Positions 1,556-40,001 of a stretch of 41,346 nt of DNA are shown piece by piece. The notes under the pieces are model-generated. The model searched no databases. It was given only the letters and a program-made list of their open reading frames with translations, and was not told the origin of the DNA. The stretch is from Clostridiales bacterium (lineage in GTDB: Bacteria > Bacillota > Clostridia > Lachnospirales > Lachnospiraceae). The stretch is taken from NCBI GenBank assembly GCA_020859985.1, contig JAJBVD010000044.1:1-41346 (forward strand). The letters run 5' to 3'. Made by a program: the position numbers and the translations under genes. Within the stretch, counting starts at the first letter, position 1; each line of letters opens with the position of its first letter.

Positions 1556-1568
1556 GGAGAAACTGGTG

Positions 1569-3875
1569 ATGATTATAAGACGAAAATGTAGTCAGGTGAA
1601 ATTAAAAGATTTGTTAAAAGCCGATCCATTTTCAAGAGAATTGTTAATACGATATGATGCTCGGTATCAGTATGTCCCGGTTATGACAAAATCGGATTTT
1701 TTCGATCAGGTATATGCGGATGTTGCAGAGAAAAAAATTAAATGGAGAGATGGTTCACGAAATGAAGTTTACGATGAAGATATTGATGTATGGGAAAAAG
1801 AAGTCGCAGAAACGGAGAATTCGTTAGTCATTTTTATAGAAGGGTACGCTGGATGTGGGAAATCTGTATTTGTACAGCATTTTTTAAAGCAACAACTCGG
1901 AATAGATGGATATGAATATAACTATTATAATTATGATATTGCTGCATATCCTAGAGGAAATGTAGAGGAACACCATATTTTGCCATCTCTTGTGCAGGGA
2001 TTTATTAGTCACCTGACAACTTGTGTAATTGATAATCCAAATGTTGTGAGAAAATTTAAGGAACTGGTTTCTCAGGAAGAAATAAAATATATCGATAAAT
2101 CGTTAAAAATATCGAATAACTTTGTTAATTCCAAAGTGTTTGCTGAAGCAGAAAAACGCCTGAAAGCCGATCATAAGGCAGAAATGTTCCGTGTTGCTGT
2201 AAATACCCAACTGGAAAAAATGGGATGTGAACACATATTGGCACTTGATTTTGTTTTAAGGCTTGCGAATTATATTGAAAATGGAGAGAACCCCGTTATT
2301 TACATTTGTTATGATAATTTGGATGCTATTGAGGATATACAGGAATTATATGATTTTATCAATATGCTGATATCTTCCAGACGAAACGTTGATACTTATA
2401 TTAATAAGACGGAAAAAAATTACAGCAATTTGTCGACTCCTCGTATTGTTTTATTTTCAACCTATCGAAAAATTACTGCTGCAAGAGTTGAACTTGCAAA
2501 CCTGTCAGAACGCTGTGGAGATATCTCGGATGAACATGAGTTCATTCAGTATATTGAGGGATCGAACCTTTATAATTATCAAGACATTGTTGAAAATAGA
2601 AGAAAATTTTTTGATCCACTCTTGAATTCACGCCATATTGGAGGAGATAAGATTAGAAGACAATTTGACAAGGTGGCAGTTTTGTCAAAGCTTCATTTTG
2701 TCAAAGTTAAATATGCGGGACTCTGGAATAACAATTACCGCGTATGTAGCAATATTTTGAATGATATTTTTACTTATTATGAAAGAGATATCGATATTTG
2801 TATTGCCTTACAAAGGAATAAGACGGATGGGTTTGATGAAGAATCTTCATCCTATTATGGAGCCAGTGCTGTTTTCCTTTATGTTGTATGTAGGCTCTTT
2901 CAGAAAAAGAAATTATGGGGAAGAGAGCATCTCAATCTGGTTCCATTAAGGGAAGTACCATCAGTACCTGAGCCGAAATGTTCGGAACTTACATCTTTGT
3001 CCAGATTGATTCTAACCTATATATATAATAAAACTGAAGTGAGTGGAGAGCAGGAAACAGTTTCACTAAAGGAACTGTTCGATGAGTTTAATGGTTTGTA
3101 TTCCGGCGATGAAATATGCGCATGTTTAAATAATATGCTTACGAGAGACAGTACCGGCACGTGGAGGAGGCCGATTTATTATAGCCATAAAGCTATTCCG
3201 TCAGATAAAGATACAGCAGTCAGTCTGACTAATCAGTGGGATGCTTATATTTCAAATGGAAAGGATATACCTGATAATCTATATACCGAGTTTTCCTTAT
3301 GTGAGTGTGGTGAGGCATACATAAACCTGATGATTCCGGATTTTGAATGTTTTGCAGTGCGAGCAGGCAATAAACAATCTTTGTATATGACAACAAATCC
3401 GGCAGAAATAGAAGTAATGGCGGAGAATGTTGTAAACGCAGTTAAATGTTGCTGCAAGAACATGACTCTCTTTAGCCAAAAATATATGAATATAAAGTCT
3501 ATAGATAGCTATGACAAATATATAAAATGCAGTATCCATCCACGAACTGCAAGTGGGAATCCGCAATTGCATACAGAGCGGTTTATTTTTTCTCATATCT
3601 TTTATTTAGATAAATATAGACTATGCCACATCAGAAATATGAGTGGTACGGACAAAGAGAGAGCAAATACATGTATTATCAAGGTGATCGGTGAATACCT
3701 TGATCTGTATAATGATTATATTCGGACGAAAAACCCGGAGCGTGAATTAATTGCTGAAATGCTTCGAGATAAAATGTTAGTTGCTCAAAATGCAAATGAA
3801 GAGAAGGATAGGTTTATTTCGATTCAAGTAGATTGGAATGAGTATAGGAAACTTCAAGATAAAAAAGGGAAGTGA
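1569..3875 (+). CDS. P-loop (STAND-type) NTPase partner of the phosphorylase-like protein
   Basis: A 768-residue protein. The start at 1569 is chosen because AAGGAG lies at 1554-1559; longer in-frame starts overlap the previous gene deeply. Walker A is GYAGCGKS at residues 92-99. A Walker B-like strand VIYICYDNLD lies near 243-252, and a sensor-1-like strand RIVLFSTYRK near 299-308. The first 90 residues have no recognised fold. The large C-terminal half is predicted to be globular and shows no clear TPR or LRR repeats by eye. No transmembrane segment is evident. It directly follows the phosphorylase-like gene on the same strand. Such a small effector plus large P-loop sensor arrangement is typical of bacterial NLR-like conflict systems, but which trigger it senses is unknown. 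Confidence 0.7.
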   Translation: MIIRRKCSQVKLKDLLKADPFSRELLIRYDARYQYVPVMTKSDFFDQVYADVAEKKIKWRDGSRNEVYDEDIDVWEKEVAETENSLVIFIEGYAGCGKSVFVQHFLKQQLGIDGYEYNYYNYDIAAYPRGNVEEHHILPSLVQGFISHLTTCVIDNPNVVRKFKELVSQEEIKYIDKSLKISNNFVNSKVFAEAEKRLKADHKAEMFRVAVNTQLEKMGCEHILALDFVLRLANYIENGENPVIYICYDNLDAIEDIQELYDFINMLISSRRNVDTYINKTEKNYSNLSTPRIVLFSTYRKITAARVELANLSERCGDISDEHEFIQYIEGSNLYNYQDIVENRRKFFDPLLNSRHIGGDKIRRQFDKVAVLSKLHFVKVKYAGLWNNNYRVCSNILNDIFTYYERDIDICIALQRNKTDGFDEESSSYYGASAVFLYVVCRLFQKKKLWGREHLNLVPLREVPSVPEPKCSELTSLSRLILTYIYNKTEVSGEQETVSLKELFDEFNGLYSGDEICACLNNMLTRDSTGTWRRPIYYSHKAIPSDKDTAVSLTNQWDAYISNGKDIPDNLYTEFSLCECGEAYINLMIPDFECFAVRAGNKQSLYMTTNPAEIEVMAENVVNAVKCCCKNMTLFSQKYMNIKSIDSYDKYIKCSIHPRTASGNPQLHTERFIFSHIFYLDKYRLCHIRNMSGTDKERANTCIIKVIGEYLDLYNDYIRTKNPERELIAEMLRDKMLVAQNANEEKDRFISIQVDWNEYRKLQDKKGK

Positions 3876-18314: not shown

Positions 18315-18461
18315 GTAGAAAATTGTATAAAAATAACAAAAAAAATTTAACAATGCGACTATAAACAGTAAAAAAGCACCAAATAATATTAATATAGTTA
18401 ATAATTATTAAAATCATTAAAATGAAATTATTATTTGTAATACGATGTTGTGGGGATAAAC

Positions 18462-19514
18462 ATGAACAGCCAAAATACTAAAACTTATTCTGCTCTTTTA
18501 AAACGGTTGGGTAATGAAATTCAAAAAGAAATGAGATACCAAAATATTGATCAGACAGAGCTTTCAGTACGGTCTGGTTTAAGTCAGTCAACTATTTCAA
18601 ATATGATAAATGGAAAAGAAAATGTTTCTATGAAGAAATATTTTTGGGTAATGGAAACGCTCCAAATAGATGCGATTGCTATGCTCACGCATTGCTCCGA
18701 TGAACTGCAAAGTAGTATGTCCAATGAGGAAAGTGCAAAACCATTTTGTTTTCCTGATGAATCCTGGAAAAACTTCATCAGCGATCCGGATGATTTTGCA
18801 TTTAACGGACAACTGGGAAAGTTCCACAGTTTGTTTCACTCTACGAATAGACATGACGATAAACTGATCCGCGGGACATTAAGTTTGTATCCGAAATATG
18901 GAAAATGTCAGGCAGAATTAGAAATTCTGGTTGAAAATAATTCAAAGGATATACCGGATGGAAAGAAAAAATATATAGGAACGGCAGTGATATCAATTAT
19001 ACAAAAAGCGGTGTATTTATTATTGGTGAATGAGGCAATAGGAGAATTGTGCTTTTTAACTTATCCTTATATGCAAATACTTGGAAGCGATACTTCTTTA
19101 GAATGCACTATGGCACTTGCATTGACAGTGTCATCCGGGGTTGACAGCAGAATGCCGACCGCACACAGGATGTTTTTGTCGCGCAGAAAATGCGATCAGA
19201 AAGCAGAAGAATTAATTTCGGCTCAGCTTATGATGAATAAGTCTTTGATACGAATTGACTCGCGGGAATTCGATGCAATTCGTAATAAAAACGGTTTCTC
19301 AGAGGAGTTTATTAATGTGTTTTATAAGCATTATGCAAAGAAGGAATATTATGAAATAGATGAAGATATTTTTAAACAATTAATTCGAGAAAATAAGAAA
19401 TTTTTCGAGGATTTGTGTATCCTAAGAGGGCATTCAACATCCCCAAAGAATAATAAAATAAGTGGAACAGCAATAAACGATATTTACCGTTGCGTCATAA
19501 ATGATTTGCCATAA
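18462..19514 (+). CDS. XRE-type HTH regulator with unknown C-terminal domain
   Basis: A 350-residue protein. A start at 18462 is preferred over 18450 because it has a GGGGA signal a few bases upstream and matches the usual start of such domains. Residues about 10-60 form a Cro/CI-type HTH: QTELSVRSGLSQSTISNMI carries the typical SxxTIS recognition helix. The remaining 290 residues have no recognised fold (segments PDESWKNFI and CTMALALTVSSGVD). It precedes the NACHT, RelA/SpoT and DUF4062 genes on the same strand, so it is a candidate regulator or sensor of that island. Whether it represses the island cannot be told from sequence. Confidence 0.75.
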   Translation: MNSQNTKTYSALLKRLGNEIQKEMRYQNIDQTELSVRSGLSQSTISNMINGKENVSMKKYFWVMETLQIDAIAMLTHCSDELQSSMSNEESAKPFCFPDESWKNFISDPDDFAFNGQLGKFHSLFHSTNRHDDKLIRGTLSLYPKYGKCQAELEILVENNSKDIPDGKKKYIGTAVISIIQKAVYLLLVNEAIGELCFLTYPYMQILGSDTSLECTMALALTVSSGVDSRMPTAHRMFLSRRKCDQKAEELISAQLMMNKSLIRIDSREFDAIRNKNGFSEEFINVFYKHYAKKEYYEIDEDIFKQLIRENKKFFEDLCILRGHSTSPKNNKISGTAINDIYRCVINDLP

Positions 19515-19541
19515 GGGGTTCCCATTTCCTATTGAACTGAT

Positions 19542-19697
19542 ATGGCGGCAGAACTTTCGGATGAAGTACATAGATCTCAGATTGCAAAAACTTCAGAGGC
19601 TGTAATTGGGGATTCGGTGGGTCTCTATATTATATTCAGATTGGATGCGGGGAATAAACCTGTTTGGCCGAAATCTGAAAGGAGAAAAAGAATATGA
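19542..19697 (+). CDS. Possible 51-aa protein overlapping the NACHT gene start
   Basis: An open frame of 51 codons from ATG 19542 to TGA 19697. Its stop overlaps the ATG of the NACHT gene at 19694 in an ATGA, which often marks translational coupling. Its start has no convincing ribosome site (weak AAGGGG far upstream), and the sequence (ending FRLDAGNKPVWPKSERRKR) matches nothing that I recognise. It may instead be just the leader of the NACHT gene. Confidence 0.35.
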   Translation: MAAELSDEVHRSQIAKTSEAVIGDSVGLYIIFRLDAGNKPVWPKSERRKRI

Positions 19698-21832
19698 AAA
19701 AAAACGAGCGGGAAAAAATAGATAATCTTTATAAATCATATGAATTTGAAAAGGTAAAAGAATGTCCTAGCTGCAATGTTTATACATATGATCAGGGCTA
19801 TTTTAACAATGCGGAGATTGTTGTTTTTGATGAATCAGAAGATAACATTGAAGAAATTAAAAATGAGTTTGGCAGAATGGGATATTCGATTTCCAAACGG
19901 AAAGCCAGTGAATATGAGATTATTAAACAGGAACTTTTTAAAGGCTTTTTTAGAATTGCTGCTTCAAATGAAAGGGTGATTCGGGAATATAACAGGTATT
20001 GCGATATTCAGTCGAAGCGAATAGGCGGCGGCTCTTATTCGTACATTGAATCTCACTATTTGCTGAATGGGCAGCCATGTGAAAAAAATATTCTGGAAAC
20101 AATTTATTCGCAGATTATGCAGGAAGGTTCACAGCTGATTATTCTTGAAGCACCGGCAGGATTTGGAAAAACATGTACCGCGTATGAAATTGTAAATTTA
20201 ATTGCGCGAGATAATGATGAGACAACCCCATTTTTGACAGAACTGTCGAAAAACAGAATGGCAAAGATATTTCGTTATGTATTGTTGGATGAATGTGATA
20301 AGAAATTTCCGAGGTTGTCTTATGATTTGGTAATTGGACAGATTAAGGCAGGAAATATTCCACTTATCATTGATGGATTTGATGAACTTCTTTCTAAAGC
20401 AGAAAATGATTCAGAAAATACGGATAGCTCTGACAATGAAGCGGTAACAATGTTGGACACGATCGCACAATTGTTTGGTAAAGACAGCAAAGCAAAGGTT
20501 TTGCTGACTTCTAGAAAAAACTCTATCTTTGCAGGAAAAGTGTTTGATAATTGGGTCGAAAAGAAACTTGATGGCTGCGTTGTAAACCGAGTTCAGATAC
20601 AGACACCAACCAGTAGGGATTGGATTGGAGCGGAAAAACTGGAGTATCTGAGTAAAATTGGAATTGAAGCAGATTATATTGCAAACCCGGTTTTACTGTC
20701 AATGCTTAGAAATATGTCACTTGAAGATTTTGAATCTAAATTTCGGACAGCAAAAGATATAGTTGATAATTACTATGATATTATGTTGGAAAGAGAGAAA
20801 GAAAGACAGCAATTGCTGATTAGCGTGGATGAGCAAAAAAACATTATGCGTAAATTAGCAACAATAATGGTATTATTGGATTTTTCATCTGATGATCCAG
20901 AAAATATGCAGGAATGGATAAAAGAAGTGGTATCTTCAGATGACATGGCAAGGTACTTGAAATTATATAGCGACAAGGCAGAGTATGATGATATTTTAGT
21001 TCCAAGCGAAGACGAGTTTATTATGAAACTTGTACATAATGCTCTTCTTGACAGGGTCTCTATTAATTCAAACAGTATCGGATTTATAAATGATTTTATA
21101 TTTGGTATTCTGATTGGGGATGCAATATACGAGAATGAATTGCAACCAAAGGATTTATCTGACAAATATGTAATCCTGATTTCTTCTGCATATATAGTTG
21201 AGGACAAGGACAGACGTGAAATTGTTTCGCGGAAGATTCACGAAGCGGATTTAAACCTAAGTATTGATCTCTGGCTTCAGCTTGATATGAATCTGCCGCA
21301 CTCACTTAGTGAAAATTATAAAAATGAATATATCCGGGATGTGGTTTTCTCGGGAGGTACAAATTTTACTATGGGAGGGAAATTTAATAATTGTACATTT
21401 GAATCCTGCACGTTTGAAAGCAATCGGATACCTAAAGACTTGTTTAGCGGATGTTGCTTTATTAATTGTAGTTTTTATGATGTGACGGTTATTGAAACTG
21501 GAAACCCGATGGAGAATTCAACGTTTATTTCATGCAAAGGAGTTGAACAGCTGCAGAAAAAATTGATGATCAATAATCCTGAGACTTTACAGAAGGACGA
21601 ACTATACTATGAAAAACTGGTATTAGAACAGTATTGGAAAAAAGGCGCTAAATTCGCGGAACCAAGAAAAACCCGCTTGACGTTGATGAAAGGGATTAAC
21701 CAGCGTGAACATGCACAGGTAGGACTGGCGATTGCGAATTTGATCAGTAAGGGAATACTTGTCGAACTAACCAATTGTATACAACTGGAGTTTTCGAAAA
21801 TCGGTGAGGTCAAATCCATATTGGGAAGATAA
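19694..21832 (+). CDS. NACHT-family NTPase with pentapeptide-like C-terminal repeats
   Basis: A 712-residue protein with GAAAGGAGAA upstream. Residues 1 to about 130 form an unrecognised N-terminal region that could be an effector or adaptor. The NACHT core has Walker A APAGFGKT (153-160), Walker B LIIDGFDEL (224-232) and sensor-1 KVLLTSRK (about 267-274). The winged-helix region follows. Residues about 545-615 contain short Asn/Cys/Phe-rich repeats (FNNCTFESCTFES and GCCFINCSF), like pentapeptide repeats that may form the sensor face. NACHT NTPases with C-terminal repeats are known bacterial immune sensors. Neighbouring RelA/SpoT and TIR-like genes support a defence role, which is inference. 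Confidence 0.8.
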   Translation: MKKNEREKIDNLYKSYEFEKVKECPSCNVYTYDQGYFNNAEIVVFDESEDNIEEIKNEFGRMGYSISKRKASEYEIIKQELFKGFFRIAASNERVIREYNRYCDIQSKRIGGGSYSYIESHYLLNGQPCEKNILETIYSQIMQEGSQLIILEAPAGFGKTCTAYEIVNLIARDNDETTPFLTELSKNRMAKIFRYVLLDECDKKFPRLSYDLVIGQIKAGNIPLIIDGFDELLSKAENDSENTDSSDNEAVTMLDTIAQLFGKDSKAKVLLTSRKNSIFAGKVFDNWVEKKLDGCVVNRVQIQTPTSRDWIGAEKLEYLSKIGIEADYIANPVLLSMLRNMSLEDFESKFRTAKDIVDNYYDIMLEREKERQQLLISVDEQKNIMRKLATIMVLLDFSSDDPENMQEWIKEVVSSDDMARYLKLYSDKAEYDDILVPSEDEFIMKLVHNALLDRVSINSNSIGFINDFIFGILIGDAIYENELQPKDLSDKYVILISSAYIVEDKDRREIVSRKIHEADLNLSIDLWLQLDMNLPHSLSENYKNEYIRDVVFSGGTNFTMGGKFNNCTFESCTFESNRIPKDLFSGCCFINCSFYDVTVIETGNPMENSTFISCKGVEQLQKKLMINNPETLQKDELYYEKLVLEQYWKKGAKFAEPRKTRLTLMKGINQREHAQVGLAIANLISKGILVELTNCIQLEFSKIGEVKSILGR

Positions 21833-21888
21833 GTAATTATTTTCTAATATGGATTTCGATAAACTGTTTAGAGAAAAGATAAAGAAGG

Positions 21889-22821
21889 ATGAAAAACATA
21901 ATGTACAATATGAAAGATGATGATATTGAACGCCTTGTAGGTGCTTTGGATGGCCCTATTGTTAGTGAAATCCGTAGACCAATCGAAAATAAACTGCAGA
22001 AATGTGGTATTATGTACCGCCTGTTTTCACGTGTAAAGTCAAAAGAGTCGATACGGGCGAAATTGAGCTGGAAAGCGGAAGAATATGAAAGAGATGGGAA
22101 AAAACTTCAGGATGCGATTGGATTTCGTATTGTTTTGTATTTTAGAGATGATATAGATATTTGCATCAAAATTCTCAACGAACTATTCGATGTAGATAAT
22201 TATGAGTATGATAAGCCGAACTCAGAAACTTTTAAACCTCAGCGTATTAACTATGTATTCAGAATTCCGGATGGCATAATAGGTTTCCCGAGTAATCCGA
22301 ATATAAGGAATATTATTGATGATACATTCGAAGTTCAGATACGTACAATTTTTTCAGAAGGATGGCATGAGGTAGAACATGACGTTAGATATAAATATAA
22401 ATCTGAATGGGAAAATGAAGGATTTATTTCCAGAGAATTAAATGGAATATTAGCTGTCCTGGAAGTGTGCGATAATAATATATTGGCTATATGTGACGAT
22501 ATGGCATACAAAAAATATAAAGAAAAAGATTGGGAATCTATGCTTCGACATAAGTTTAGACTTCGCCTGAAGAATGACCCTTTGGCTGACAATATCCGAC
22601 AGATTTTGAATGAAGCACCGGATATAGCAAAAGAATTATTTCGATTTGACAGGGGCGTGTTTATTGATTATTTATGCAGTTATTCAATTCCTTTGAATTG
22701 TAACAATATTGTATGTGTGGCAAATGAGTTTCTATCAAAAAATGAACAAATTCGTCAGATATCAACCAATAGAATTAAAGAAACATGTGCCAGGTATATA
22801 GAAAGCAAGGCTGTTTCGTAA
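21889..22821 (+). CDS. RelA/SpoT-domain nucleotidyltransferase-like protein, divergent
   Basis: A 310-residue protein. The start may be 21889 or 21901; AAGG sits right before the first. The RelA/SpoT synthetase-type fold is indicated by RVKSKESIRAKL (about 48-59), LQDAIGFRIVLYFRDDI (about 73-89), FEVQIRTIFSEGWHEVEHDVRYK (first catalytic Glu in EVQIRT, about 147-169). No HD hydrolase or ACT/TGS domain is present, so it is of the small-synthetase size plus a C-terminal helical extension. The G-loop Tyr-x-x-x-His usual in ppGpp synthetases reads FKPQRINYVFRI instead, so product identity is uncertain. Some relatives are toxins that modify tRNA or make alarmones. It follows the NACHT gene by 56 bp. 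Confidence 0.75.
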   Translation: MKNIMYNMKDDDIERLVGALDGPIVSEIRRPIENKLQKCGIMYRLFSRVKSKESIRAKLSWKAEEYERDGKKLQDAIGFRIVLYFRDDIDICIKILNELFDVDNYEYDKPNSETFKPQRINYVFRIPDGIIGFPSNPNIRNIIDDTFEVQIRTIFSEGWHEVEHDVRYKYKSEWENEGFISRELNGILAVLEVCDNNILAICDDMAYKKYKEKDWESMLRHKFRLRLKNDPLADNIRQILNEAPDIAKELFRFDRGVFIDYLCSYSIPLNCNNIVCVANEFLSKNEQIRQISTNRIKETCARYIESKAVS

Positions 22822-22929
22822 GATATCCGATAGATATTTGTTCCTTAGCAAATAAACTGAAAACAAGCTGCGGGTTTATGGAATTTTCAAATGTAAAAAT
22901 AATTATTTAAAACTCCAAGGAGGCACGAG

Positions 22930-24402
22930 ATGCTATCTCCGAAATACCAGATTTTTGTATCGTCTACATTTACTGACCTTAAAGGACCTCGAGCGAAGGT
23001 TCGCGATGCTATCTTGTCTATGTATAATTTTCCTGTTGGTATGGAAATGTTTGGTGCTGCAGATGAAGAACAATGGCAGATTATTAAAGAGACTATTGAT
23101 TCCTCGGATTATTATGTTCTGATTGTTGGACAGAGATATGGTACAGTTATTAATACAGGGGAATTTGCTGGGATTAGCTATACGGAGAGAGAATTTCGGT
23201 ATGCGTTGGAAAAGAAAATCCCGGTGCTTGCATTTATCGTAGATGAAGATGTGCTTGTCAAACCTGCTGACATGGAAAAAGAGAATTCGGAAAAGCTTAA
23301 GGCGTTTAAGGAATTTGTTAGGGATGGACGGCTCGTAGACACTTGGAAGAACGAGGATGAATTGGCGCGTAAGGTGATGGATTCCCTTTACAAGCAGATT
23401 GCCAGAACCCGGCGTCCAGGCTGGATCAGGGGAGATACAATAGATATTGAGAAAAGCCTGAAAATGCTTACGGATCTGAGTGCGCAGGTTCAGACCCTGA
23501 CGGAAGAGAATAAGAAGCTCTTCGAGGAAAACTGCGTATTAAAGCAGAATTCAGCCCGATCAGCCAGGAGACCGAGACTTGAAATTTCTTTTGAGGCGGA
23601 TGTACCGGATGATGTTGAAGAGGAATATACTCATTTATTTAACCGTAAGGATAACATCCGTACAGATGAAGATGGAAAGATTTATCTGAGGGTTCTTACA
23701 ATACATACAGAAGCAATCCGGCGAAAATATTTACCTGTGAGCATAGAGGGTTTTTCGGATGAAACCCGTGCATATATTACGGAAGAGGATATTAAAAAAT
23801 ATAATGGGGCTCTTCCGGATGAAGAGGAATTAGGGGTATATTTGAAAAAGTATAAAGCCTATCATCTGGCTCAGGATTGCGGAATTGCAGTGACTCTTTC
23901 AGTTTGGAATTCGGGAAATGCGAAAGCTACAGATGTGTTGGTTTCGATTGTTTTTCCGGAGGAAATTGCTGTTTTTGATATAGAAAACATAAAAGATATG
24001 AAAAAACCTGTTGAGCTGAAACGACCTCAGAATTTGGAGGAGCTTGCATACGAAAGAGCGCTTTTAGCCAAGAAACATATGTCAGAGAGCGTTATGGAAA
24101 ATGTTTTTGCGCAGTTTGACAAGTATACGCGGGCAGCGTATGGTAGAGAGAATGCCTTTGACTGGGCTTCTATTCCGCCACTAACGCAAATAGATGGTCA
24201 GCCCTTTGATGAAGCGCTTACGATTGCTGGTAATGTTGTGAAAGTTGAGTCTGATAATGGTATCTTGCACAGTACTTCTGGCTGCTTCGGGGGGATATAC
24301 ATCATTCCAAGACAGAAAGGCGAATTCAAAGCCAAGGTGACTTTGATGTGTGCGGAATACGAAGAACCAGAAGAGAGAGAATTGATTTTTGTCTGTGAAT
24401 AA
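22930..24402 (+). CDS. DUF4062 (TIR-like) protein with coiled-coil and C-terminal beta domain
   Basis: A 490-residue protein with AAGGAGG at 22917-22923. The N-terminus matches DUF4062 closely: KYQIFVSSTFTDL, then GMEMFGAADEEQW, SSDYYVLIVGQRYGT (residues about 4-75) and SYTEREFRYALEKKIPVLAFI. DUF4062 is related to TIR and usually sits in front of STAND or other sensor modules in bacterial conflict proteins. A coiled coil (about 170-205) and a C-terminal region with VWNSGNAKATDVLVSI (CARDB-like beta sandwich) follow. Whether it hydrolyses NAD is unknown, because the usual TIR catalytic Glu was not pinned down by eye. It is the last gene of the HTH-NACHT-RelA/SpoT run. Confidence 0.8.
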   Translation: MLSPKYQIFVSSTFTDLKGPRAKVRDAILSMYNFPVGMEMFGAADEEQWQIIKETIDSSDYYVLIVGQRYGTVINTGEFAGISYTEREFRYALEKKIPVLAFIVDEDVLVKPADMEKENSEKLKAFKEFVRDGRLVDTWKNEDELARKVMDSLYKQIARTRRPGWIRGDTIDIEKSLKMLTDLSAQVQTLTEENKKLFEENCVLKQNSARSARRPRLEISFEADVPDDVEEEYTHLFNRKDNIRTDEDGKIYLRVLTIHTEAIRRKYLPVSIEGFSDETRAYITEEDIKKYNGALPDEEELGVYLKKYKAYHLAQDCGIAVTLSVWNSGNAKATDVLVSIVFPEEIAVFDIENIKDMKKPVELKRPQNLEELAYERALLAKKHMSESVMENVFAQFDKYTRAAYGRENAFDWASIPPLTQIDGQPFDEALTIAGNVVKVESDNGILHSTSGCFGGIYIIPRQKGEFKAKVTLMCAEYEEPEERELIFVCE

Positions 24403-24606
24403 ATGAGTAAGCATCACAGATAATTGTTGTGAGTTATGCTAATATAGTTTATCAGAACTTCTAAGCACCATAGAGACTAACGCTGAAACATGAAACACTG
24501 TTTATTCTCTTATGATTTGTTACGAAAGACAAAGCGACGAGAGCTTCAATGGCAGAAGGAAGAGCTTGCATGTTTTTGTAGTACTGGTGAAAATCCGGCA
24601 CAAACC

Positions 24607-24642: not shown

Positions 24643-25350
24643 TTGAATTACGACTTAATGTTCAATTTGAGCCTTGCGGCGATAATTTCCATTGTTGTTG
24701 TTGTTATTTTATATTCTATTCTCAAAAATCCATATAAATTCCCATACTATACAGTGGATTTTGATGTATCCGGACGCAGGAATGTAGTAATGCTTGATGA
24801 GATAGAAAACTATCTTAACGTTCATGGTTTGGACGAGTTCGATCTGAGAAAAGATGAGACAGAGGAATGGAAGGTAAAATATTCCCAAAAGGCACACAAA
24901 TCCATACTTAGACCTTTAAGAGTTTGGCAGTATAACCGTACAATTGATGATGAAGCTCTGTTTGAATTTAATTTGTGTAGAAAGCAGATTAGGTATAGGC
25001 AGCGAAATTACATAAAGATGCCATATGAAGTAATGAACACAGTAGAAACTTTTGACTGTGATTATGATTATATTGTCGGAAGATATAGAGAACTGGAGAA
25101 GATTGGATTTGAAACAACCACATCGAGATATCGTGTGAAAAATCAAAGGAGACTAATGACGCAGGAAATGAGGGAACGAATTAAAATTCGTGATAATTAC
25201 ACCTGTCAGATGTGTGGAAAATATATGCCTGATGAGGTTGGATTGCAAATTGATCATATTGTGCCGGTATCAAAAGGCGGCAAAACATTAGAAAGCAATT
25301 TACAGGTTTTGTGTTCTGTTTGTAATGGCAGGAAATCTAATAAGTTGTGA
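24643..25350 (+). CDS. Membrane-anchored HNH endonuclease-like protein
   Basis: A 235-residue protein starting with TTG, supported by GGGAG at 24631-24635. An N-terminal hydrophobic segment (about residues 7-26) would anchor it. Residues about 180-235 are an HNH nuclease motif: CQMCGKYM, IDHIVPVSKGG, SNLQVLCSVCNGRKSN (two CxxC zinc pairs around the catalytic His). The middle (30-170) is charged and unrecognised. An HNH module with a membrane anchor is also seen in some defence proteins. It has its own probable promoter, so may be independent of the preceding island. Confidence 0.75.
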   Translation: MNYDLMFNLSLAAIISIVVVVILYSILKNPYKFPYYTVDFDVSGRRNVVMLDEIENYLNVHGLDEFDLRKDETEEWKVKYSQKAHKSILRPLRVWQYNRTIDDEALFEFNLCRKQIRYRQRNYIKMPYEVMNTVETFDCDYDYIVGRYRELEKIGFETTTSRYRVKNQRRLMTQEMRERIKIRDNYTCQMCGKYMPDEVGLQIDHIVPVSKGGKTLESNLQVLCSVCNGRKSNKL

Positions 25351-25667
25351 TTACTACAAAGTGGGGAGCCGATGCCATTGCGCTTGCGCAATTACACAGC
25401 CTTCCCAACTTACCCATCCAGCGAAGAATTTGTCTGGTGCATAGGAGTTGCATGGCACAGGGGCGTGTAACAGTATTGTCGCGAATGTTGACAGCTTGGT
25501 TTGTTTGCTGGTGCACTAAATTTGTCTTTGGATAGATACTTTGCATTTTTTGGCTTACATTCACTGTGTTAGGCATAAAACTCTAAAATTTTGTGTTATG
25601 GAATTGACAAATAAAATATACTAATTGATAGCATATGTATTACAGCAGGAGGAGGGCATTTGTAAAC
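25351..25667 (+). other. Gene-free stretch, 317 bases
   Basis: No credible gene; apparent frames here lack ribosome sites and show no motif. Slightly higher GC than its neighbours in the first half. Ends with AGGAGG (25648-25655 region), used by the KOW-domain gene. Confidence 0.4.
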
Positions 25668-26366
25668 ATGAGACAGAAGAAGGCCAAAATGCAAATGCCA
25701 GATTTCCGTACACTGCCACCGGAGCAACGTCCGGCAGTCGGAGAAAAAATTACTATAGCGTCGGGGCCATTAGAGGGCAAAGCTGGCATTGTGGTGAGTA
25801 GACTTTCCGTTAACCGAGTTTCGATTGAGATACCATTTTGTGGTAGAAAAGCCGTAATAAGGATGGGACGCGAGGCACTTTTAGATGAGGATGGGAAGCA
25901 GATGCCGAAATACTATACGGAAGAGGAAAAAAAGGAACATGTCGAGCAGTTCAGACGTTTGGAATTGGAAATGGGTGAAAACCGTCTGCATGATTACATG
26001 AAGTATAAAATGGGCCTCCGCAGCGAAACCAGGGAAAAATTAAAAAATGGCGAAGAGTGGGTAAGAGATTATTTTGATGAGGATATTTGCGAGGGGCTTG
26101 GAATTGGAATCGGATGGATACTGGACGGAGATAAAGCTTGTAAGGATTATCCGTGTGGAAACCAGATGAAGACATATTTGAACGAACGCCCAGAGAGACG
26201 TTCTCAGGTCTGGAAATGGATGCAAGAGGATGGATGTGAGGTGCTGGACTATTTCCACGGTTGTGTGGAAGATGACTGGCTCGAGGAAGAAGAGTATGAA
26301 GAATATGAAGAATACGAAGAAGAGGAATTTGAAGAGGGTAGTTTTGAAGATGACTTAGAGGATTGA
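25668..26366 (+). CDS. KOW-domain protein with acidic C-terminal tail
   Basis: A 232-residue protein, start 25668, with AGGAGG about 13 bases earlier; an ATG at 25635 is in frame but has no ribosome site. Residues about 24-72 resemble the NusG C-terminal KOW domain (VGEKITIASGPLEGKAGIVV, then IPFCGRKAVIRMG). There is no NusG N-terminal domain. The middle is unrecognised, and the last 30 residues are almost only Glu and Tyr (EEYEEYEEYEEEE). Such a KOW without NGN might bind RNA polymerase or ribosomes. A strong hairpin at 26429 follows. The family is inferred from a single domain. Confidence 0.6.
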   Translation: MRQKKAKMQMPDFRTLPPEQRPAVGEKITIASGPLEGKAGIVVSRLSVNRVSIEIPFCGRKAVIRMGREALLDEDGKQMPKYYTEEEKKEHVEQFRRLELEMGENRLHDYMKYKMGLRSETREKLKNGEEWVRDYFDEDICEGLGIGIGWILDGDKACKDYPCGNQMKTYLNERPERRSQVWKWMQEDGCEVLDYFHGCVEDDWLEEEEYEEYEEYEEEEFEEGSFEDDLED

Positions 26367-26428
26367 GAATGAAGATTTATGTTGATATATGTCGGTCAAC
26401 TACAACTTGCGTTGTGTTTTGCTGCAAA

Positions 26429-26463
26429 AAAGTGACGGATAATTAGGGATTATCCGTCACTTT
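26429..26463 (+). terminator. Strong hairpin, copy 1 (ACGGATA family)
   Basis: A perfect 15-bp stem (AAAGTGACGGATAAT / ATTATCCGTCACTTT) with loop TAGGG and flanking A/T tracts, 63 bases after the KOW gene. The stem could terminate in either direction. Confidence 0.8.
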
Positions 26464-26515
26464 ACAGAGTGATTCATATAGATTTCCCAAAATTCATTAA
26501 TAGAGACATAAGACT

Positions 26516-27403
26516 ATGGAAAATGAATATGCTTTAACGATTGTATTAAGCAGCCTCCAAATAGACTGCTTAAAGCGCAGAAGGATTGAACATTTTATTA
26601 AAAATAACGTAAATTGGTTTAAAGTTTTTCAAATAGCTACAAAGGAAAAAACAGTATTTCTGGTATATAAAAATTTGTTAGAACAACATTACTTATTTCT
26701 GCTGCCTTCCACCTTACGGGTTGTCTGGGAACGCGCATATTATGGTAATATCCAGCATAACCAATTCTTGATTTCGAGAACCTGTGAAGTCGAAGACACG
26801 TTTGCTCAAAATCACATCACTGCATATCCAATCAGAGGAATAATCATACTTCAATTGTTCCCAGAATGTACAGGCTGGCGTATATTACGGGATGTTGATT
26901 TTCTGGTTAGTTCTGATTGTGTAGAAAAAGCAAGCGAAGTAATGTTAAAGGAAGGATTCGCCAAGCTTTACATCAACGACGAAGATTTACTGCTAAATAA
27001 TAAGAACTCATTCAAAAGTTCTATTTTTTTCGAGAAAAAATATGAAAATCTTGGAGCCTTTGATTGTGACTTGTGCCAGGATATCAAACCTTATGAACAA
27101 TATGAACGAATTCTTTTATCCTTGTCAAAACAGGGATCAGAAGACTATTTCATTTCACATTGCATTTTGTTTTATTTATCAGCACTTGATGCAGTTGATA
27201 AAGAAACCATGAAACAGTCGAAAGCAGATAACTCTTACCGGCTTGCAAAATTATTGGATATTCAGTTGTTAGAACATTTATGTATAAACAAGGACATAAA
27301 ATCCGGCCTTGACAGAGAAATTGAAGCTTTCCAAATAGGAAGTCAGGTAAATATCATCCGAAAACTCATCACTCACTACTGGGAAGGAGGCGGAACCGTA
27401 TGA
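26516..27403 (+). CDS. Nucleotidyltransferase-family protein (NTP_transf_5-like)
   Basis: A 295-residue protein. Segments match the uncharacterised NTP_transf_5 family: VYKNLL near residue 60, VWERAYYGNIQHNQFL (about 70-85), YPIRGIIILQLFP (the usual KGI-type segment) and the metal-binding Asp pair in RDVDFLV (about 125-131). It is therefore a Pol-beta-type nucleotidyltransferase. Family members occur in lasso-peptide and surface-polymer clusters. Its stop overlaps the next ATG (ATGA). The start codon has only a weak ribosome site. Substrate unknown. Confidence 0.7.
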   Translation: MENEYALTIVLSSLQIDCLKRRRIEHFIKNNVNWFKVFQIATKEKTVFLVYKNLLEQHYLFLLPSTLRVVWERAYYGNIQHNQFLISRTCEVEDTFAQNHITAYPIRGIIILQLFPECTGWRILRDVDFLVSSDCVEKASEVMLKEGFAKLYINDEDLLLNNKNSFKSSIFFEKKYENLGAFDCDLCQDIKPYEQYERILLSLSKQGSEDYFISHCILFYLSALDAVDKETMKQSKADNSYRLAKLLDIQLLEHLCINKDIKSGLDREIEAFQIGSQVNIIRKLITHYWEGGGTV

Positions 27404-27867
27404 ATCACATATCTATAACAAATTATTCAAAATATCCGAATCTGGTCATTCTTCTGAATGGCCTGACCGGACCGGAGGAACGGATTGCTTTTTCACAAAG
27501 CGAAAAGCTATCTTTCAGCACACTGATTCCTTATATTCAGCAGATGCAATACAGATATCAGCTATTTCATCCACATGCTTCAAAAAAAGAAATAATGGAA
27601 TTTAATCCCACTATTATTATCTGTGAACCGGAACGATTTTTTGAATGGCACCGTTCTTTCAAAGTGTCAGGTTTGGAGAAACCTCCGCTGCTTCTCACTA
27701 TAGAAAGCGCAGATACAACCAGTTCGATCAAGGAAGATAGCGTTTTAAAAATCAGGCTATATAATGTAAATTCACAAGATGTAACCATTGTATTTTCCTC
27801 AGAGCCACAAGAACGTACGGATAAATTAAGGAATCTTAATGACTTTCCTACCGTTAAGATTCAATAA
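27400..27867 (+). CDS. Unrecognised 155-aa protein coupled to the NTP_transf_5-like gene
   Basis: Begins in an ATGA overlap (27400-27403) with the gene before it. Alternating strand/helix pattern: LVILLNGLTG, then PTIIICEPERFFEWH (about 67-81), then LLLTIESADTT and VTIVFSS. This looks like a small alpha/beta fold without a visible catalytic motif. It overlaps the end of the opposite-strand STAND gene by 14 bases (27854-27867), so the two genes converge. Likely functional partner of the 26516 gene. Confidence 0.65.
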   Translation: MNHISITNYSKYPNLVILLNGLTGPEERIAFSQSEKLSFSTLIPYIQQMQYRYQLFHPHASKKEIMEFNPTIIICEPERFFEWHRSFKVSGLEKPPLLLTIESADTTSSIKEDSVLKIRLYNVNSQDVTIVFSSEPQERTDKLRNLNDFPTVKIQ

Positions 27868-30316
27868 GAGTGAAAAATTTATTATACGTTTCCAACGTCT
27901 GGTCAAAATCTATCCATTCGAATTGCGAATGGATTTCATTAATTCTGATATAATCATTCTGCATTATCGCCACCGGAAGCCAAAGGAACTGGTAAACTTT
28001 TACTTTGTCCAGTAATAACCTGAAATTAGTTACCTGCAACGGTTGCCCTAATGCATATTGTAAATATAGTTCCACTAGCATTGGCGATAGGAGTCCCAGT
28101 TCATATCCATCTTTTTTGTTGTAATACAGGCTTTTATGAATATATTTGCGTGCCAGTTTATATTTTTTGAAATGAATACAGGCAATAGCCATTGAGTAAT
28201 AGATTTTAGCAATACTTTTTGCATCATCCAATGCTTTTGCCAGTTTTAAACCGGGAAAACAGTTCTCTTTATATAAAAGCTCAGGCAACAGGTAACAGTC
28301 CGTTTCACATAGATTTGTGCGGATATATACTTCCTGTATTGAATTTTTATATTTGTGATTAGTGTCTTGCGTTTCCAGATAAAAGCTCTTTGCATCATCA
28401 AAACATAGGTTGAAGCGATATATATGCCCCATATGCCTTAATGACTGGAAGATACTGTTTTCCTGTTCTGGATAGTTCCTTATATCTTTCTGAAACGGTT
28501 CAAGTATTGCTATCGCTTGCTTAAAATTGCCAATTATCGTATGATGGTCCGCCATGAAAATCAATGCCTGGGCAAAATACCATTCGCGAATTTCCGTAGA
28601 TTTTAATGTCGGAATGATATTTTGCAGATTCGAAACAAGTATTGTATCGTCTCCAAGCCACTGGTTAAGGTATCCGCTAATTATTTGTAGTGACTTATTA
28701 TGTTTGCCCAGATAATTGTTACTGCTGTCAATCTTCTCAAGATAAGATACTCTTACTTTTGTATCAGCCCGTTCTTCAGAAATTGCTTTAGTAAACCAGT
28801 AAACATCTTTGAGAGGTTCATATTTGGAGAATTCACTGATGTCAACAGGCATTATCACAATCTGGGTTTGCTTTATTGTAAAGAAAATGTCAAGCAATCG
28901 TTCCGTATCGTTTATCTGGAGATTGAATTCATTATCTATAATCAACTGAATCAGGTGTTTATACAGTATTATAATCTGGTTGTCACTTGCACCGAATATT
29001 GTCCTGCTCGCTATGTGATTTAAATATTTTTGAAAAATATCATAGCGCGTATTATAAGGAAGGATGTGGATTACGTTATTGTGAATTACATTATGTATCT
29101 TGTATAAGTTTTCTTCGCTTTCAATATTTGTTACGAGTGACAGGGAATGAATGTCATCATATGCCAGGCATGTAGTAATTGGAAACAGAGAGAGCAACAT
29201 TAAAAATATTTCCCGATCAAATATCTGTACAAATGATAATCCGAGCATGAATTCACGCTCATTTTCGGGCAGATGGCTAAAGAACCGATCAATTATTTCG
29301 CTTTTGTCCTTATAAAAGATCATCTCAGCTTTACGCGGACTATGAACCATATCTGTGTTTTGGTATGTATTAATTGCCAGCTCCAGATAGATAGGGATAC
29401 CATCTGAAATAGCAACAATATTCCTAACCGAGTTTGTGTCAATGCCAGATATACTTTCCAGTAAAAGCTTGCTTGCTTCCTCTTCAGGAAGTTCTTTGAG
29501 CTCGTAGGATATCAGCTCATTCTTTTTCAGAAAAGGAAATCTGATTTTTTCACGACCGGCTATAATAAAAAGGCCAGTATAAGAATATTCTACTAAATCC
29601 AATAACCAGTCTTTAACGGCTGTGTCAGAAAACTGTTTATATGCATCTATAATTAGAATCAATTTTTTGTCATGATAAAGACGGTTGATCTCCATTCCAA
29701 GCAACGCTCCTAATGTACTGTATAGTTCATTCGCAGTGAGACTTGAAATATCGAACATTCTACTATTAAAAATGCGGCTATAATAAGTTGTTTTTACTTT
29801 TTGAAATACTTCCCCTGCAATCTCCGCCATTTTATCTAATGGTATATTAATAAATTCCTGAAATCCAGATAAAGGAATACTTATAAGGGATCCAATGTCT
29901 TTAATATATTCCAACCATTGTGATTTCACGGTTTTAAAATAATCTTCATTAAGCTTTGTTATCTGGACCCGATTCCAATACGTAAAGAAAGCATAATCGA
30001 ATAATGGGCACGCATATGGGATTTGGCCTCGCAGATGTACAATCGCGTTTAACAAGATTGTACTGTCTGCTATTTCCAGAGAAAGGTTTAAAATTGTTAT
30101 ATTGGTATGGTCAGCCTTCATCCTTTCATTAAGGATTTTTTTTATTTCACTCAAAAGACGTGATTTCCCAATGCCGCCCATGCCATAGATAGAAAGCACT
30201 TTATAATAATTATTTTCAAAAGACAGGTGCTGATATTCATGTTTTACCGTTTCAATGATATCGGTCCTGTCCATAAATTTTATATCTTTTCTGTTAAATA
30301 TACTTTTAAATTTCAT
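27854..30316 (-). CDS. STAND/NB-ARC-like ATPase with C-terminal helical repeats
   Basis: Minus strand, 820 residues. Walker A is GMGGIGKS (45-52), the form typical of NB-ARC/AP-ATPases. A Walker B-like LILIIDAY lies near 220-228, and FIIAGREKI near 252-260 is a likely sensor-1. Residues about 560-800 form a helix-rich region with TPR-like pairs (AQALIFMADHHTIIGNFKQA and KIYYSMAIACIHFKKYKLA), fitting a superhelical sensor. The first 35 residues contain no separate effector domain, so an effector would have to be one of the neighbouring proteins. Its start is 32 bp from the start of the divergent kinase gene, giving a shared control region. Confidence 0.7.
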   Translation of the reverse strand: MKFKSIFNRKDIKFMDRTDIIETVKHEYQHLSFENNYYKVLSIYGMGGIGKSRLLSEIKKILNERMKADHTNITILNLSLEIADSTILLNAIVHLRGQIPYACPLFDYAFFTYWNRVQITKLNEDYFKTVKSQWLEYIKDIGSLISIPLSGFQEFINIPLDKMAEIAGEVFQKVKTTYYSRIFNSRMFDISSLTANELYSTLGALLGMEINRLYHDKKLILIIDAYKQFSDTAVKDWLLDLVEYSYTGLFIIAGREKIRFPFLKKNELISYELKELPEEEASKLLLESISGIDTNSVRNIVAISDGIPIYLELAINTYQNTDMVHSPRKAEMIFYKDKSEIIDRFFSHLPENEREFMLGLSFVQIFDREIFLMLLSLFPITTCLAYDDIHSLSLVTNIESEENLYKIHNVIHNNVIHILPYNTRYDIFQKYLNHIASRTIFGASDNQIIILYKHLIQLIIDNEFNLQINDTERLLDIFFTIKQTQIVIMPVDISEFSKYEPLKDVYWFTKAISEERADTKVRVSYLEKIDSSNNYLGKHNKSLQIISGYLNQWLGDDTILVSNLQNIIPTLKSTEIREWYFAQALIFMADHHTIIGNFKQAIAILEPFQKDIRNYPEQENSIFQSLRHMGHIYRFNLCFDDAKSFYLETQDTNHKYKNSIQEVYIRTNLCETDCYLLPELLYKENCFPGLKLAKALDDAKSIAKIYYSMAIACIHFKKYKLARKYIHKSLYYNKKDGYELGLLSPMLVELYLQYALGQPLQVTNFRLLLDKVKVYQFLWLPVAIMQNDYIRINEIHSQFEWIDFDQTLETYNKFFTLIES

Positions 30317-30348
30317 AACAGCTTAGCCTTTAAGGAGGTATTAATCGG

Positions 30349-31068
30349 ATGCTTGTTACAATCTTTGGACCGGATGGAGCCGGTAAAACAACCCAAATCA
30401 AAAGATTGCTGCAGGACTATGCAGCAAATGACTTTAAAATAGCTTCGGTATACGATGTCATGCCGGATTTTGATTATCAGGTTGGGAGCGATCTTAGCAG
30501 GTATTATAATTATTTCAAAAATTTTGATGTAATACATACTCGTTTTAGATTGCACTCAAATGAAAGCGATATTGTCATGAGCATACTGGAATCCATTCCT
30601 CAGGGAACGGATATTAAATTGACAGCTCTCTCGGCGTATATCGCATATTACTCTTATGTCCAGTGGAATAAATATGTCCTTGAGCCTTTATTGGCAGATG
30701 GCAAATTTTTAATCTGTGATAAGTATTATTATGATGATGTAGCTACAAAATCTGCGTTTGGATGTCCATATAAATGGCTTAAACAATTACATTACGACAC
30801 CCGGAAACCAGATTTATCATTTTATATAAAAGTCGATGGCTCTACGCTAATAGAACGGAATATGCATCGAGCTGATGGGCGAATCGTCCATTTTCAGTCA
30901 GATGTTGGTGTTAATCGGCTTCTATATTATTATGAGCAGATTGTTCAAGATGAAAACCTTATTGCAATCAACGGCAACAATAGCCAGGATGCCATTCATT
31001 CGGAAATCGTAAATGTTCTTGAGGAACATAAACTGGCGCCGTGGCAATATAGTAATAGTTCAGACTGA
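30349..31068 (+). CDS. Thymidylate-kinase-like P-loop protein
   Basis: A 239-residue protein with AAGGAGGT before its ATG. Residues 6-14 are the Walker A GPDGAGKTT of the thymidylate-kinase group. CDKYYYDDVATK (about 123-134) fits the DRYxxS-type lid/substrate segment, with Lys in place of the usual Arg. A KPDLSFYIKVD strand follows. It lacks the usual C-terminal lid sequence and is somewhat longer than a housekeeping Tmk. Position next to a nucleotidyltransferase and a STAND ATPase suggests a specialised role. Real substrate unknown. Confidence 0.7.
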   Translation: MLVTIFGPDGAGKTTQIKRLLQDYAANDFKIASVYDVMPDFDYQVGSDLSRYYNYFKNFDVIHTRFRLHSNESDIVMSILESIPQGTDIKLTALSAYIAYYSYVQWNKYVLEPLLADGKFLICDKYYYDDVATKSAFGCPYKWLKQLHYDTRKPDLSFYIKVDGSTLIERNMHRADGRIVHFQSDVGVNRLLYYYEQIVQDENLIAINGNNSQDAIHSEIVNVLEEHKLAPWQYSNSSD

Positions 31069-31124
31069 TTGAAGCTATCCATCATAGACTCATTTTTAGG
31101 TAAAACATACGCTTAGGACCACTG

Positions 31125-31159
31125 AAAATGACGGATAATCCCTAATTATCCGTCATTTT
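31125..31159 (+). terminator. Strong hairpin, copy 2 (ACGGATA family, inverted)
   Basis: A perfect 15-bp stem (AAAATGACGGATAAT / ATTATCCGTCATTTT) with loop CCCTA, followed by T residues. The loop is the reverse complement of that in the hairpin at 26429, so the two copies are in opposite orientation around the 26.5-31.1 kb cassette. Confidence 0.8.
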
Positions 31160-39902: not shown

Positions 39903-39935
39903 TTTTGAAAGAAATTAAAAAAACGGAAAAATCGA

Positions 39936-40000
39936 GTAGGAGGCGGTGATTAGCCGCCGTCCTCTCACAGCACCGTGCGTACCGTTCGGTACACGGCGCT
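39936..40000 (-). ncRNA. Group II intron domains V and VI
   Basis: On the minus strand: AGCGCCGTG, TACC, loop GAAC, GGTA, a CG bulge, CACGGTGCT. This is domain V with its catalytic AGC triad and two-base bulge. Then a GGCGGCTAATCACCGCC hairpin carrying a bulged A is domain VI with the probable branch point. Confidence 0.8.
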
Positions 40001-40001
40001 T

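What the first reader, a model, noticed from the sequence alone, without database searches (positions are those of the whole stretch)
18462..24402. HTH - NACHT - RelA/SpoT - DUF4062 run: candidate new defence or stress-response system
Four large genes on one strand: a regulator with a large unknown C-terminal domain, a NACHT NTPase with a new N-terminal region and pentapeptide-like repeats, a RelA/SpoT-fold nucleotidyltransferase and a TIR-like DUF4062 protein. NACHT and DUF4062 are common immune parts, and small RelA/SpoT proteins can be toxins that shut down translation. Linking an NLR-type sensor with a nucleotidyltransferase of this type and a TIR-like protein is, to my knowledge, not a described combination.
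Basis: partly seen in the sequence, partly recalled or inferred. Interest (0 to 1): 0.75.

Follow-up and report, generated by a model that had tools for sequence, protein, structure and literature searches.

The report
NLR sensor paired with RelA-like enzyme
Two neighbouring genes, one for an immune-receptor-like sensor and one for an enzyme of the stress-alarm family with an altered substrate pocket, travel together through very different bacteria, plasmids and prophages and are probably an undescribed anti-virus defence pair, while the two outer genes of the reported four look like separate neighbours.

Summary
The four genes are real, but the conserved unit is the middle two. A NACHT (NLR-type) ATPase with an N-terminal NA-iREase2 domain lies directly upstream of a RelA/SpoT-fold enzyme in 45 of 80 fetched genome loci holding a relative of the enzyme; each of the 6 plasmid records and 7 viral contigs found with the NACHT protein also has the enzyme (5 of those 7 contigs repeat other loci). 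At least 80% of a related pair is present in 54 of 5,426 E. coli genomes. The proteins co-diverge (Mantel r 0.78, 44 distinct pairs). No third gene recurs. In a same-genus genome RADAR-like genes occupy the slot beside DUF4062; in two prophages the pair follows the phage repressor. The NACHT model best matches animal NLRs. The enzyme keeps six ATP-donor residues, but the acceptor Tyr of known synthetases is Phe and a His is Asn in 103 of 103 sequences (82 distinct). Best reading: an abortive-infection pair in which the NACHT protein senses invasion and switches on a pyrophosphokinase with an unusual acceptor. Some E. coli keep an intact RelA gene beside a broken NACHT gene, against an antitoxin role. 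Activity, trigger and acceptor are untested.

The parts
18450..19514 (+). HTH (C1-type) regulator with a conserved C-terminal region of about 270 aa; narrow family seen near assorted defence genes; probably a local regulator, not part of the conserved pair
19694..21832 (+). NACHT/NLR-type STAND ATPase, 712 aa: core gene 1 of the conserved pair (predicted sensor/switch)
19715..20065 (+). NA-iREase2 domain (PF22723, NACHT-associated inactive restriction endonuclease 2)
20150..20176 (+). Walker A region (residues 153-161, APAGFGKTC); A153, A155, G158, K159, T160 identical in 49 of 49 pairs
20363..20386 (+). NACHT Walker B region (residues 224-231, LIIDGFDE); D227-E231 (DGFDE) identical in 49 of 49 pairs
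21299..21544 (+). Pentapeptide-like beta-solenoid region (residues about 536-617); with the C-terminus the least conserved part of the protein
21599..21829 (+). C-terminal domain (residues 636-712), winged-helix-like order of elements in the model (inference)
21889..22821 (+). RelA/SpoT-fold protein, 310 aa, only RelA_SpoT found by Pfam, helical C-terminal third: core gene 2 (predicted effector pyrophosphokinase)
22030..22113 (+). ATP-donor residues R44, K46, S50, K54 and Mg-binding D71 (A1 numbering; add 4 for the 310-aa ORF), identical in 103 of 103 sequences
22231..22251 (+). Altered acceptor (G-) loop: F111 in the Tyr column, two-residue insertion, N117 in the His column of YxSxH
22330..22332 (+). 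E144 of the EVQIRT motif, identical in 103 of 103 sequences
22822..22876 (.). Edge of the replaceable segment: DNA homology with same-genus contig G026:C340 begins at 22876; on the other side that contig has RADAR-like genes
22930..24402 (+). DUF4062 (TIR-like) protein, 490 aa: neighbour, Swarozyc-like candidate, not part of the conserved pair

Best explanation
A two-gene, horizontally moving anti-phage (or anti-mobile-element) abortive-infection system. Proposed steps: (1) the NACHT protein is a resting NLR-type ATPase; (2) its variable C-terminal part (pentapeptide solenoid and last domain), perhaps with the NA-iREase2 domain, senses an invader or its effect; (3) ATP-dependent oligomerisation follows; (4) the oligomer recruits or unlocks the separately encoded RelA/SpoT-fold enzyme; (5) that enzyme transfers pyrophosphate from ATP to an acceptor that is not bound in the classical way, most likely an RNA 3' end or an unusual nucleotide, and stops growth of the infected cell. 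Shown: conserved linkage, NLR-type model, intact ATPase motifs, six intact ATP-donor residues, altered acceptor loop, mobile and defence contexts, survival of intact RelA genes beside broken NACHT genes. Inferred: sensing, oligomerisation, activation, the reaction, its acceptor and the outcome.
Against: No activity, trigger or acceptor was measured. A fifth basic donor position (FaRel2 R77, tentatively K58) is Lys in only 19 of 49 pairs. Defence neighbours were picked by eye without a control set; other picked neighbours were ordinary, such as an aconitase, or had no Pfam family. RelA survival beside broken NACHT could reflect lost expression. The Mantel test does not correct for species history. 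In the window the two genes are 56 nt apart rather than overlapping.
Confidence: 0.62

Rival explanations
1. Toxin-antitoxin type pair: RelA is active by default and the NACHT protein holds it in check until infection removes or alters NACHT, as antitoxins do for toxSAS enzymes.
For: RelA-fold toxins with neighbouring or fused antitoxins are known (PMC11782079, passages; PMC9712102, passages); the NACHT gene comes first and often overlaps RelA.
Against: Full-length RelA persists with NACHT split, IS-interrupted, shortened beside an IS element or lacking its 5' part in six inspected E. coli records; in 4 of 45 genome loci NACHT is in two ORFs while RelA is full length; the Yersinia hibernica NACHT lacks its N-terminal part beside an IS1 gene with RelA 300 aa. 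The partner is a full ATPase, not a small antitoxin. Not excluded: RelA may be silent in those strains.
Confidence: 0.14
2. Signal direction reversed: the RelA-fold enzyme makes an alarmone-like messenger on infection and the NACHT protein (or a neighbour such as DUF4062) is the receptor and effector.
For: Related nucleotidyltransferases make immune messengers (recalled); other defence genes sit nearby; RelA occurs with CARF proteins near type III CRISPR loci (PMC10910872, passages).
Against: No active effector domain was found in the NACHT protein: its N-terminal domain is NA-iREase2, called inactive by Pfam, and no third gene recurs. Only RelA_SpoT was found in the RelA protein, whose helical C-terminal third was not folded or searched alone.
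Confidence: 0.13
3. Ordinary stress-response gene beside an unrelated NACHT gene, i.e. the RelA protein is a housekeeping small alarmone synthetase.
For: Relatives, fused in Lachnospiraceae and stand-alone in Bacteroidota, lie without NACHT in what look like ordinary chromosomal contexts.
Against: Recurrent adjacency in distant groups, plasmids and prophages, very patchy occurrence, altered acceptor loop.
Confidence: 0.06
4. One four-gene system as first proposed (HTH, NACHT, RelA, DUF4062 acting together).
For: All four are on one strand in the window; the HTH protein could regulate the following genes.
Against: HTH and DUF4062 proteins not found in L021-L104; DUF4062 and an HTH relative occur with RADAR-like genes in a same-genus genome.
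Confidence: 0.05

Closest known systems
Bacterial NLR-related bNACHT proteins (bNACHT25, bNACHT02 and others; PMC12169576, passages)
   Same: Central NACHT ATPase, NLR-type predicted structure, variable C-terminal part.
   Different: In that paper bNACHT25 and bNACHT32 carry an N-terminal nuclease effector in the same chain and bNACHT02 and bNACHT12 have no discernible effector; here the N-terminal domain is NA-iREase2 and a RelA/SpoT-fold enzyme is encoded next door.
CapRel and other toxSAS (PMC9712102 and PMC11782079, passages)
   Different: Partner is a NACHT ATPase, not a small antitoxin or pseudo-zinc-finger domain; the acceptor-loop Tyr needed by CapRel is Phe here.
Small alarmone synthetases RelP/RelQ
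   Different: GYxS..H acceptor loop replaced; extra helical C-terminal third; linked to NACHT.
Avs (STAND) defence proteins
   Same: STAND ATPase sensors; Avs4 is among the Foldseek matches (rank 13).
   Different: Avs carry their effector in the same chain (recalled); animal NLR entries fill the ranks above it.
Swarozyc (DUF4062 NADase; PMC13174449, abstract and Results part 1)
   Same: The neighbouring gene 22930-24402 has the DUF4062 domain.
   Different: Concerns the neighbour only; not conserved with the NACHT-RelA pair.
RelA domains in other conflict systems: vWA fusions (PMC7159879), CARF plus RelA near type III CRISPR (PMC10910872), polymorphic toxins (PMC3482391); passages of each
   Same: RelA/SpoT domain used as a likely effector in conflict systems.
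   Different: Other partners; no NACHT-RelA pair in the passages seen.

Membership tests
Bacterial NLR / bNACHT | NACHT ATPase with Walker A and B | tested here: met
   Pfam NACHT 27.3 bits against cut-off 26.7 in the window protein; below cut-off or not listed in the four relatives scanned; K159, T160 and D227-E231 identical in 49 of 49 pairs
Bacterial NLR / bNACHT | NLR-type overall fold | tested here: met
Bacterial NLR / bNACHT | N-terminal effector domain in the same chain | tested here: not met
   N-terminal domain is NA-iREase2 in the window protein and the 4 relatives scanned, named inactive by Pfam; its residues were not examined for lost catalysis. Clade 14 bNACHT proteins also lack a discernible effector (PMC12169576)
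Bacterial NLR / bNACHT | Anti-phage activity | not testable with these tools
   needs phage challenge
Small alarmone synthetase | SYNTH fold and ATP-donor residues | tested here: met
Small alarmone synthetase | Acceptor-loop Tyr and His of YxSxH | tested here: not met
   Phe in the Tyr column and Asn in the His column in 103 of 103 (82 distinct at 90%). The 10 canonical sequences were picked with a YxSxH pattern, so their Tyr and His are by construction; an eleventh, L119, left out by the other half of that pattern, also has GYRSLH
toxSAS / CapRel | Acceptor-loop Tyr required for activity | tested here: not met
   set against passages of PMC9712102 and PMC11782079
toxSAS / CapRel | Cognate antitoxin gene or domain | tested here: inconclusive
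   only the NACHT gene recurs beside it; full-length RelA persists without intact NACHT, but its expression there is unknown
toxSAS / CapRel | tRNA pyrophosphorylation or (p)ppApp synthesis | not testable with these tools
   needs biochemistry
Swarozyc (neighbour gene only) | DUF4062 domain | tested here: met
   PF13271 3.1e-26
Swarozyc (neighbour gene only) | Catalytic Glu and portal-binding auxiliary domain | not tested
   no alignment to KpSwz was made

The most novel reading that the evidence does not exclude
A bacterial NLR that works through a separate, activated pyrophosphokinase whose acceptor is new: not GDP/GTP, ATP or tRNA held by the classical tyrosine pocket, but another RNA end or nucleotide. 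It would be an NLR pathway whose output is pyrophosphorylation, and the same altered enzyme would also exist without the NLR, as genes of Lachnospiraceae and Bacteroidota.
Probability: 0.38. Interest if true: 0.87.

Novelty: new variant of a known kind. Interest (0 to 1): 0.72.

Why it matters
It would link two large immune themes, NLR-type sensing and RelA/SpoT-type pyrophosphoryl transfer, in one compact cassette found in several phyla and, nearly whole, in about 1% of complete E. coli genomes (54 of 5,426), so it can be tested at once in laboratory strains. The altered acceptor loop makes a sharp biochemical question: what does an alarmone-synthetase fold modify when its acceptor tyrosine is gone? 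The window also places the pair in a slot that RADAR-like genes occupy in a related genome.

Tried and rejected
Four-gene operon: rejected (see verdict). Operon signals: promoter and terminator scans at chance level. Known PADLOC system: no strong hit for the NACHT, RelA or DUF4062 proteins (best RelA matches Cas5a 0.005 and PDC-S33 0.007; the HTH protein matches PDC-M69A at 3.7e-6 through its HTH). NCBIfam: the NACHT protein's pentapeptide part matches HalA of Hailong weakly (21 bits, cut-off 250). INPHARED phages: no match for the L147 NACHT protein, three RelA matches of 26-27% identity. The Klebsiella pair has no E. coli match; the window DNA has none in E. coli. My first reading that the acceptor loop simply lacks an aromatic residue (notebook, entries 3 and 4) was dropped: the alignment puts an invariant Phe there. 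My notebook also counts K58 among conserved donor residues; one search shows that it varies. A reverse test on NA-iREase2 in another order could not be run; the family-wide run gave 2 of 397 genomes, the window's own and G666, both with the pair. CapRel, Tas1 and FaRel2 appear in the fold comparison with lower Z (11.8, 11.0, 8.0), which does not exclude a toxSAS-like function. The helical third of RelA and the last domain of the NACHT protein were not folded alone. Literature: ten searches (of these 27, 39, 47, 101, 102 and 126 combine NACHT or STAND with RelA, alarmone or toxSAS words, 27 with a space in 'RelA SpoT' and so blind to the slash form) listed no paper that I could recognise as describing the pair; I saw listings, and passages of the papers named here. 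PMC13092281 and PMC10440598 (passages) and PMC12691689 (passages) showed none; PMC11559606 had no passage for the acceptor-loop words tried. PMC9394441 lists NACHT and RelA/SpoT COGs among genes unique to one Pseudomonas isolate, without linking them (passages). Most subscription papers, among them the 2023 bNACHT paper, are not held, so priority is not shown.
Full report
What is in the window. The window is one whole contig (C6, 41,346 bases) of an unnamed assembly; the nearest named relatives of the pair are Lachnospiraceae, which suggests but does not show its family. Four intact genes lie on the + strand at 18450-24402: a C1-type HTH protein, a 712-aa NACHT protein, a 310-aa RelA/SpoT-fold protein and a 490-aa DUF4062 protein (Pfam values). 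The NACHT protein's N-terminal region is the known Pfam domain NA-iREase2. Gaps are 179, 56 and 108 nt, and promoter or terminator patterns are no more frequent than in shuffles.

The conserved unit is NACHT plus RelA. A scan of named genome contigs with an alignment of 26 RelA relatives confirmed 121 stretches and kept the best 80. HMM searches of their ORFs split the 80 into: 45 stand-alone RelA genes with the same NACHT family directly upstream on the same strand; 21 proteins of 606-837 aa, mostly titled Lachnospiraceae, with RelA fused to a further region and no NACHT; and 14 Bacteroidota stand-alone genes without NACHT. Gaps in the 45 run from -71 to +17 nt, 35 of them between -4 and +5 (starts were called mechanically, so the long overlaps may be start errors). 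In 4 of the 45 the NACHT gene is in two ORFs (L026, L079, L085, L087), and L057 is cut by its contig end. Of the 14 Bacteroidota loci 12 have over 7.8 kb upstream; L072 and L096 have under 0.7 kb, so they are not tested. By record title, with phyla assigned by me, the 45 come from Bacillota, Bacteroidota, Pseudomonadota, Campylobacterota, Spirochaetota and Myxococcota.

The reverse direction holds too. In viral contigs the NACHT alignment found 7 loci and the RelA alignment 7, on the same 7 contigs. They are not 7 independent cases: L142-L145 are 96-99.97% identical over 9-13 kb to the E. coli element L156, and L146 equals genome locus L095 over 13.4 kb; L147 and L148 are prophages 79% alike over 4.2 kb. 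In plasmids the NACHT protein found 6 records (Pantoea 2, Klebsiella 2, Yersinia 2), the same 6 that head the RelA list, four of them inspected; the RelA search had 14 records in all, the others being 2 Lachnospira/Eubacterium eligens records (35% identity) and 6 weak matches. Among the 120 listed relatives of each protein, 34 longest-contig lengths beyond the window's are shared, against 0-3 when one list is shifted by a few bases. NA-iREase2 is over its cut-off in 2 of 397 genomes of the family, the window's own and G666, both with the pair. Distances in 49 pairs (window, 3 plasmid, 40 genome, 5 viral loci; broken or cut NACHT left out) correlate with r 0.80, 0 of 9,999 permutations as high. 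With near-copies removed r is 0.78 (44 pairs under 95% RelA identity), 0.72 (37, under 80%) and 0.70 (35, under 65%), again 0 of 9,999 each. This does not remove species history.

The outer genes are not part of it. phmmer with the HTH and DUF4062 proteins found nothing in L021-L104. The HTH search found 14 proteins including the query, none on a contig length shared with the NACHT or RelA lists. In same-genus genome G026 the window's 22876-24565 (86%) and 25589-31159 (91% DNA identity) are present; just upstream of its DUF4062 gene (85% identical protein) stand RdrB-like and RdrA-like genes instead of NACHT-RelA (PADLOC 1.2e-35 and 4e-12), with a second RdrB-like gene and an HTH relative (28% identity) further upstream. 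HTH relatives were found in 6 of 200 family genomes including the window's own. Of the five others, G587 has RdrA-like and RdrB-like genes downstream, G582 has a SpbK-like TIR gene and a BovA-like CHAT-domain gene on the facing strand, two (G670, G669) have neighbours without a PADLOC match, and G662 was not scanned. So the HTH protein is plausibly a regulator reused by different defence operons. DUF4062 is described as a TIR-like NADase family that defends as Swarozyc (PMC13174449, a preprint; abstract and Results part 1).

Context points to defence and mobility. No neighbour family recurs in more than 3 of 49 loci. Of 8 neighbours of the pair picked by eye, 7 match PADLOC families: a type IV restriction-like protein, a weak BovA match, an Argonaute-like match, two type I methyltransferases, AbiEi and AbiEii; one has none. 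Of 6 others scanned with Pfam, one is OLD-type, one RhuM, one aconitase and three have no family. There was no control set. In viral contigs L147 and L148 the order is phage repressor (phrog_4, E 2e-49 and 2e-51), NACHT, RelA, with replication genes on the other strand. That is the place of lambda's rexAB exclusion genes (recalled), so the pair may be expressed in the lysogen. In E. coli 67 of 5,426 complete genomes have some match to the Enterobacter pair and 54 have at least 80% of it; one of the 67 is a short 71% match. Three inspected contexts carry integrase, recombinase, ParB and relaxase genes, two of them beside ssrA.

Why NACHT is more likely activator than antitoxin. Six inspected E. 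coli records carry a full-length 301-aa RelA (five with accession WP_000282312.1, which also stands beside intact NACHT in L156) next to a NACHT gene that is split in two, interrupted by IS2, shortened beside IS3 or IS66, or lacks its 5' part (H3 has a second matching place not inspected). Three records carry a full-length NACHT gene with a broken or shortened RelA. Each gene is thus tolerated without its partner. Loss of expression could give the same picture.

Literature. Ten searches (listed under Tried and rejected) showed no description of the pair. RelA domains have been noted in vWA-MoxR systems (PMC7159879), near type III CRISPR with CARF (PMC10910872) and in polymorphic toxins (PMC3482391), passages of each. 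The 2023 bNACHT paper is not held, so it may contain this clade.

Verdict. A real, widespread two-gene system, very probably defensive, that joins an NLR-type ATPase to an altered RelA/SpoT-fold enzyme; new variant of a known kind. Mechanism inferred, confidence 0.62.

Noticed in passing
L112:7869-13368 and L127:832-9334 (G026:C340): Same-genus genome with RdrA-like and RdrB-like genes and, upstream, a second RdrB-like gene (1055 aa) preceded by a 908-aa gene, an unknown 454-aa gene and an HTH relative: possibly two RADAR-like sets in tandem, with a SIR2-like gene beyond.
   Followed up: partly
window 18450-19514; L127:8258-9334; L137:5055-6140; L138:10259-11395: Narrow HTH family with a conserved C-terminal region of about 270 aa, found near NACHT-RelA, RADAR-like genes (two genomes) and a SpbK-like TIR gene: candidate regulator of several kinds of defence operon.
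   Followed up: partly
G000:C52:128976-129785 (L117), L002-L020 and 21 of L034-L077: Fusions of the same RelA domain with a further region (606-837 aa in all), mostly Lachnospiraceae; Pfam found only RelA_SpoT in the one scanned (L002).
   Followed up: partly
L037, L054, L070, L072, L073, L082, L086, L090-L093, L096, L101, L102: Bacteroidota stand-alone relatives without a visible NACHT gene, several near anti-sigma-factor-like, STAS-like or transporter-like genes (judged by eye from ORF starts).
   Followed up: no
window 27854-30316: 820-aa STAND-like ATPase on the - strand, 92% identical in G026; another candidate defence gene in the same region.
   Followed up: no
window 149-3875: PNP-superfamily protein (PADLOC PDC-M60C 2.4e-15) overlapping an 810-aa ORF with a weak ATPase match.
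   Followed up: no
window 24643-25350: HNH protein whose HNH region matches the IscB model (8e-13, far below its cut-off), in a stretch without DNA homology in the G026 contig.
   Followed up: no
window 39931-40001: Group II intron domain (Rfam RF00029) on the - strand.
   Followed up: no
L026 / L141 (G666:C25, 27,529 bp): Contig of the same length and gene content titled Bacteroidales in one collection but listed in the window's own family in the other; its NACHT gene is split in two ORFs.
   Followed up: partly
L104: NACHT-RelA lies between genes whose starts look like aroA and cmk (by eye), i.e. apparently inserted among housekeeping genes.
   Followed up: no
L142-L146 (IMG/VR contigs): Five of seven 'viral' contigs with the pair look like bacterial elements: four match the E. 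coli ssrA-type element L156, one equals Comamonas locus L095 and carries a Zot-like gene of filamentous phages.
   Followed up: yes
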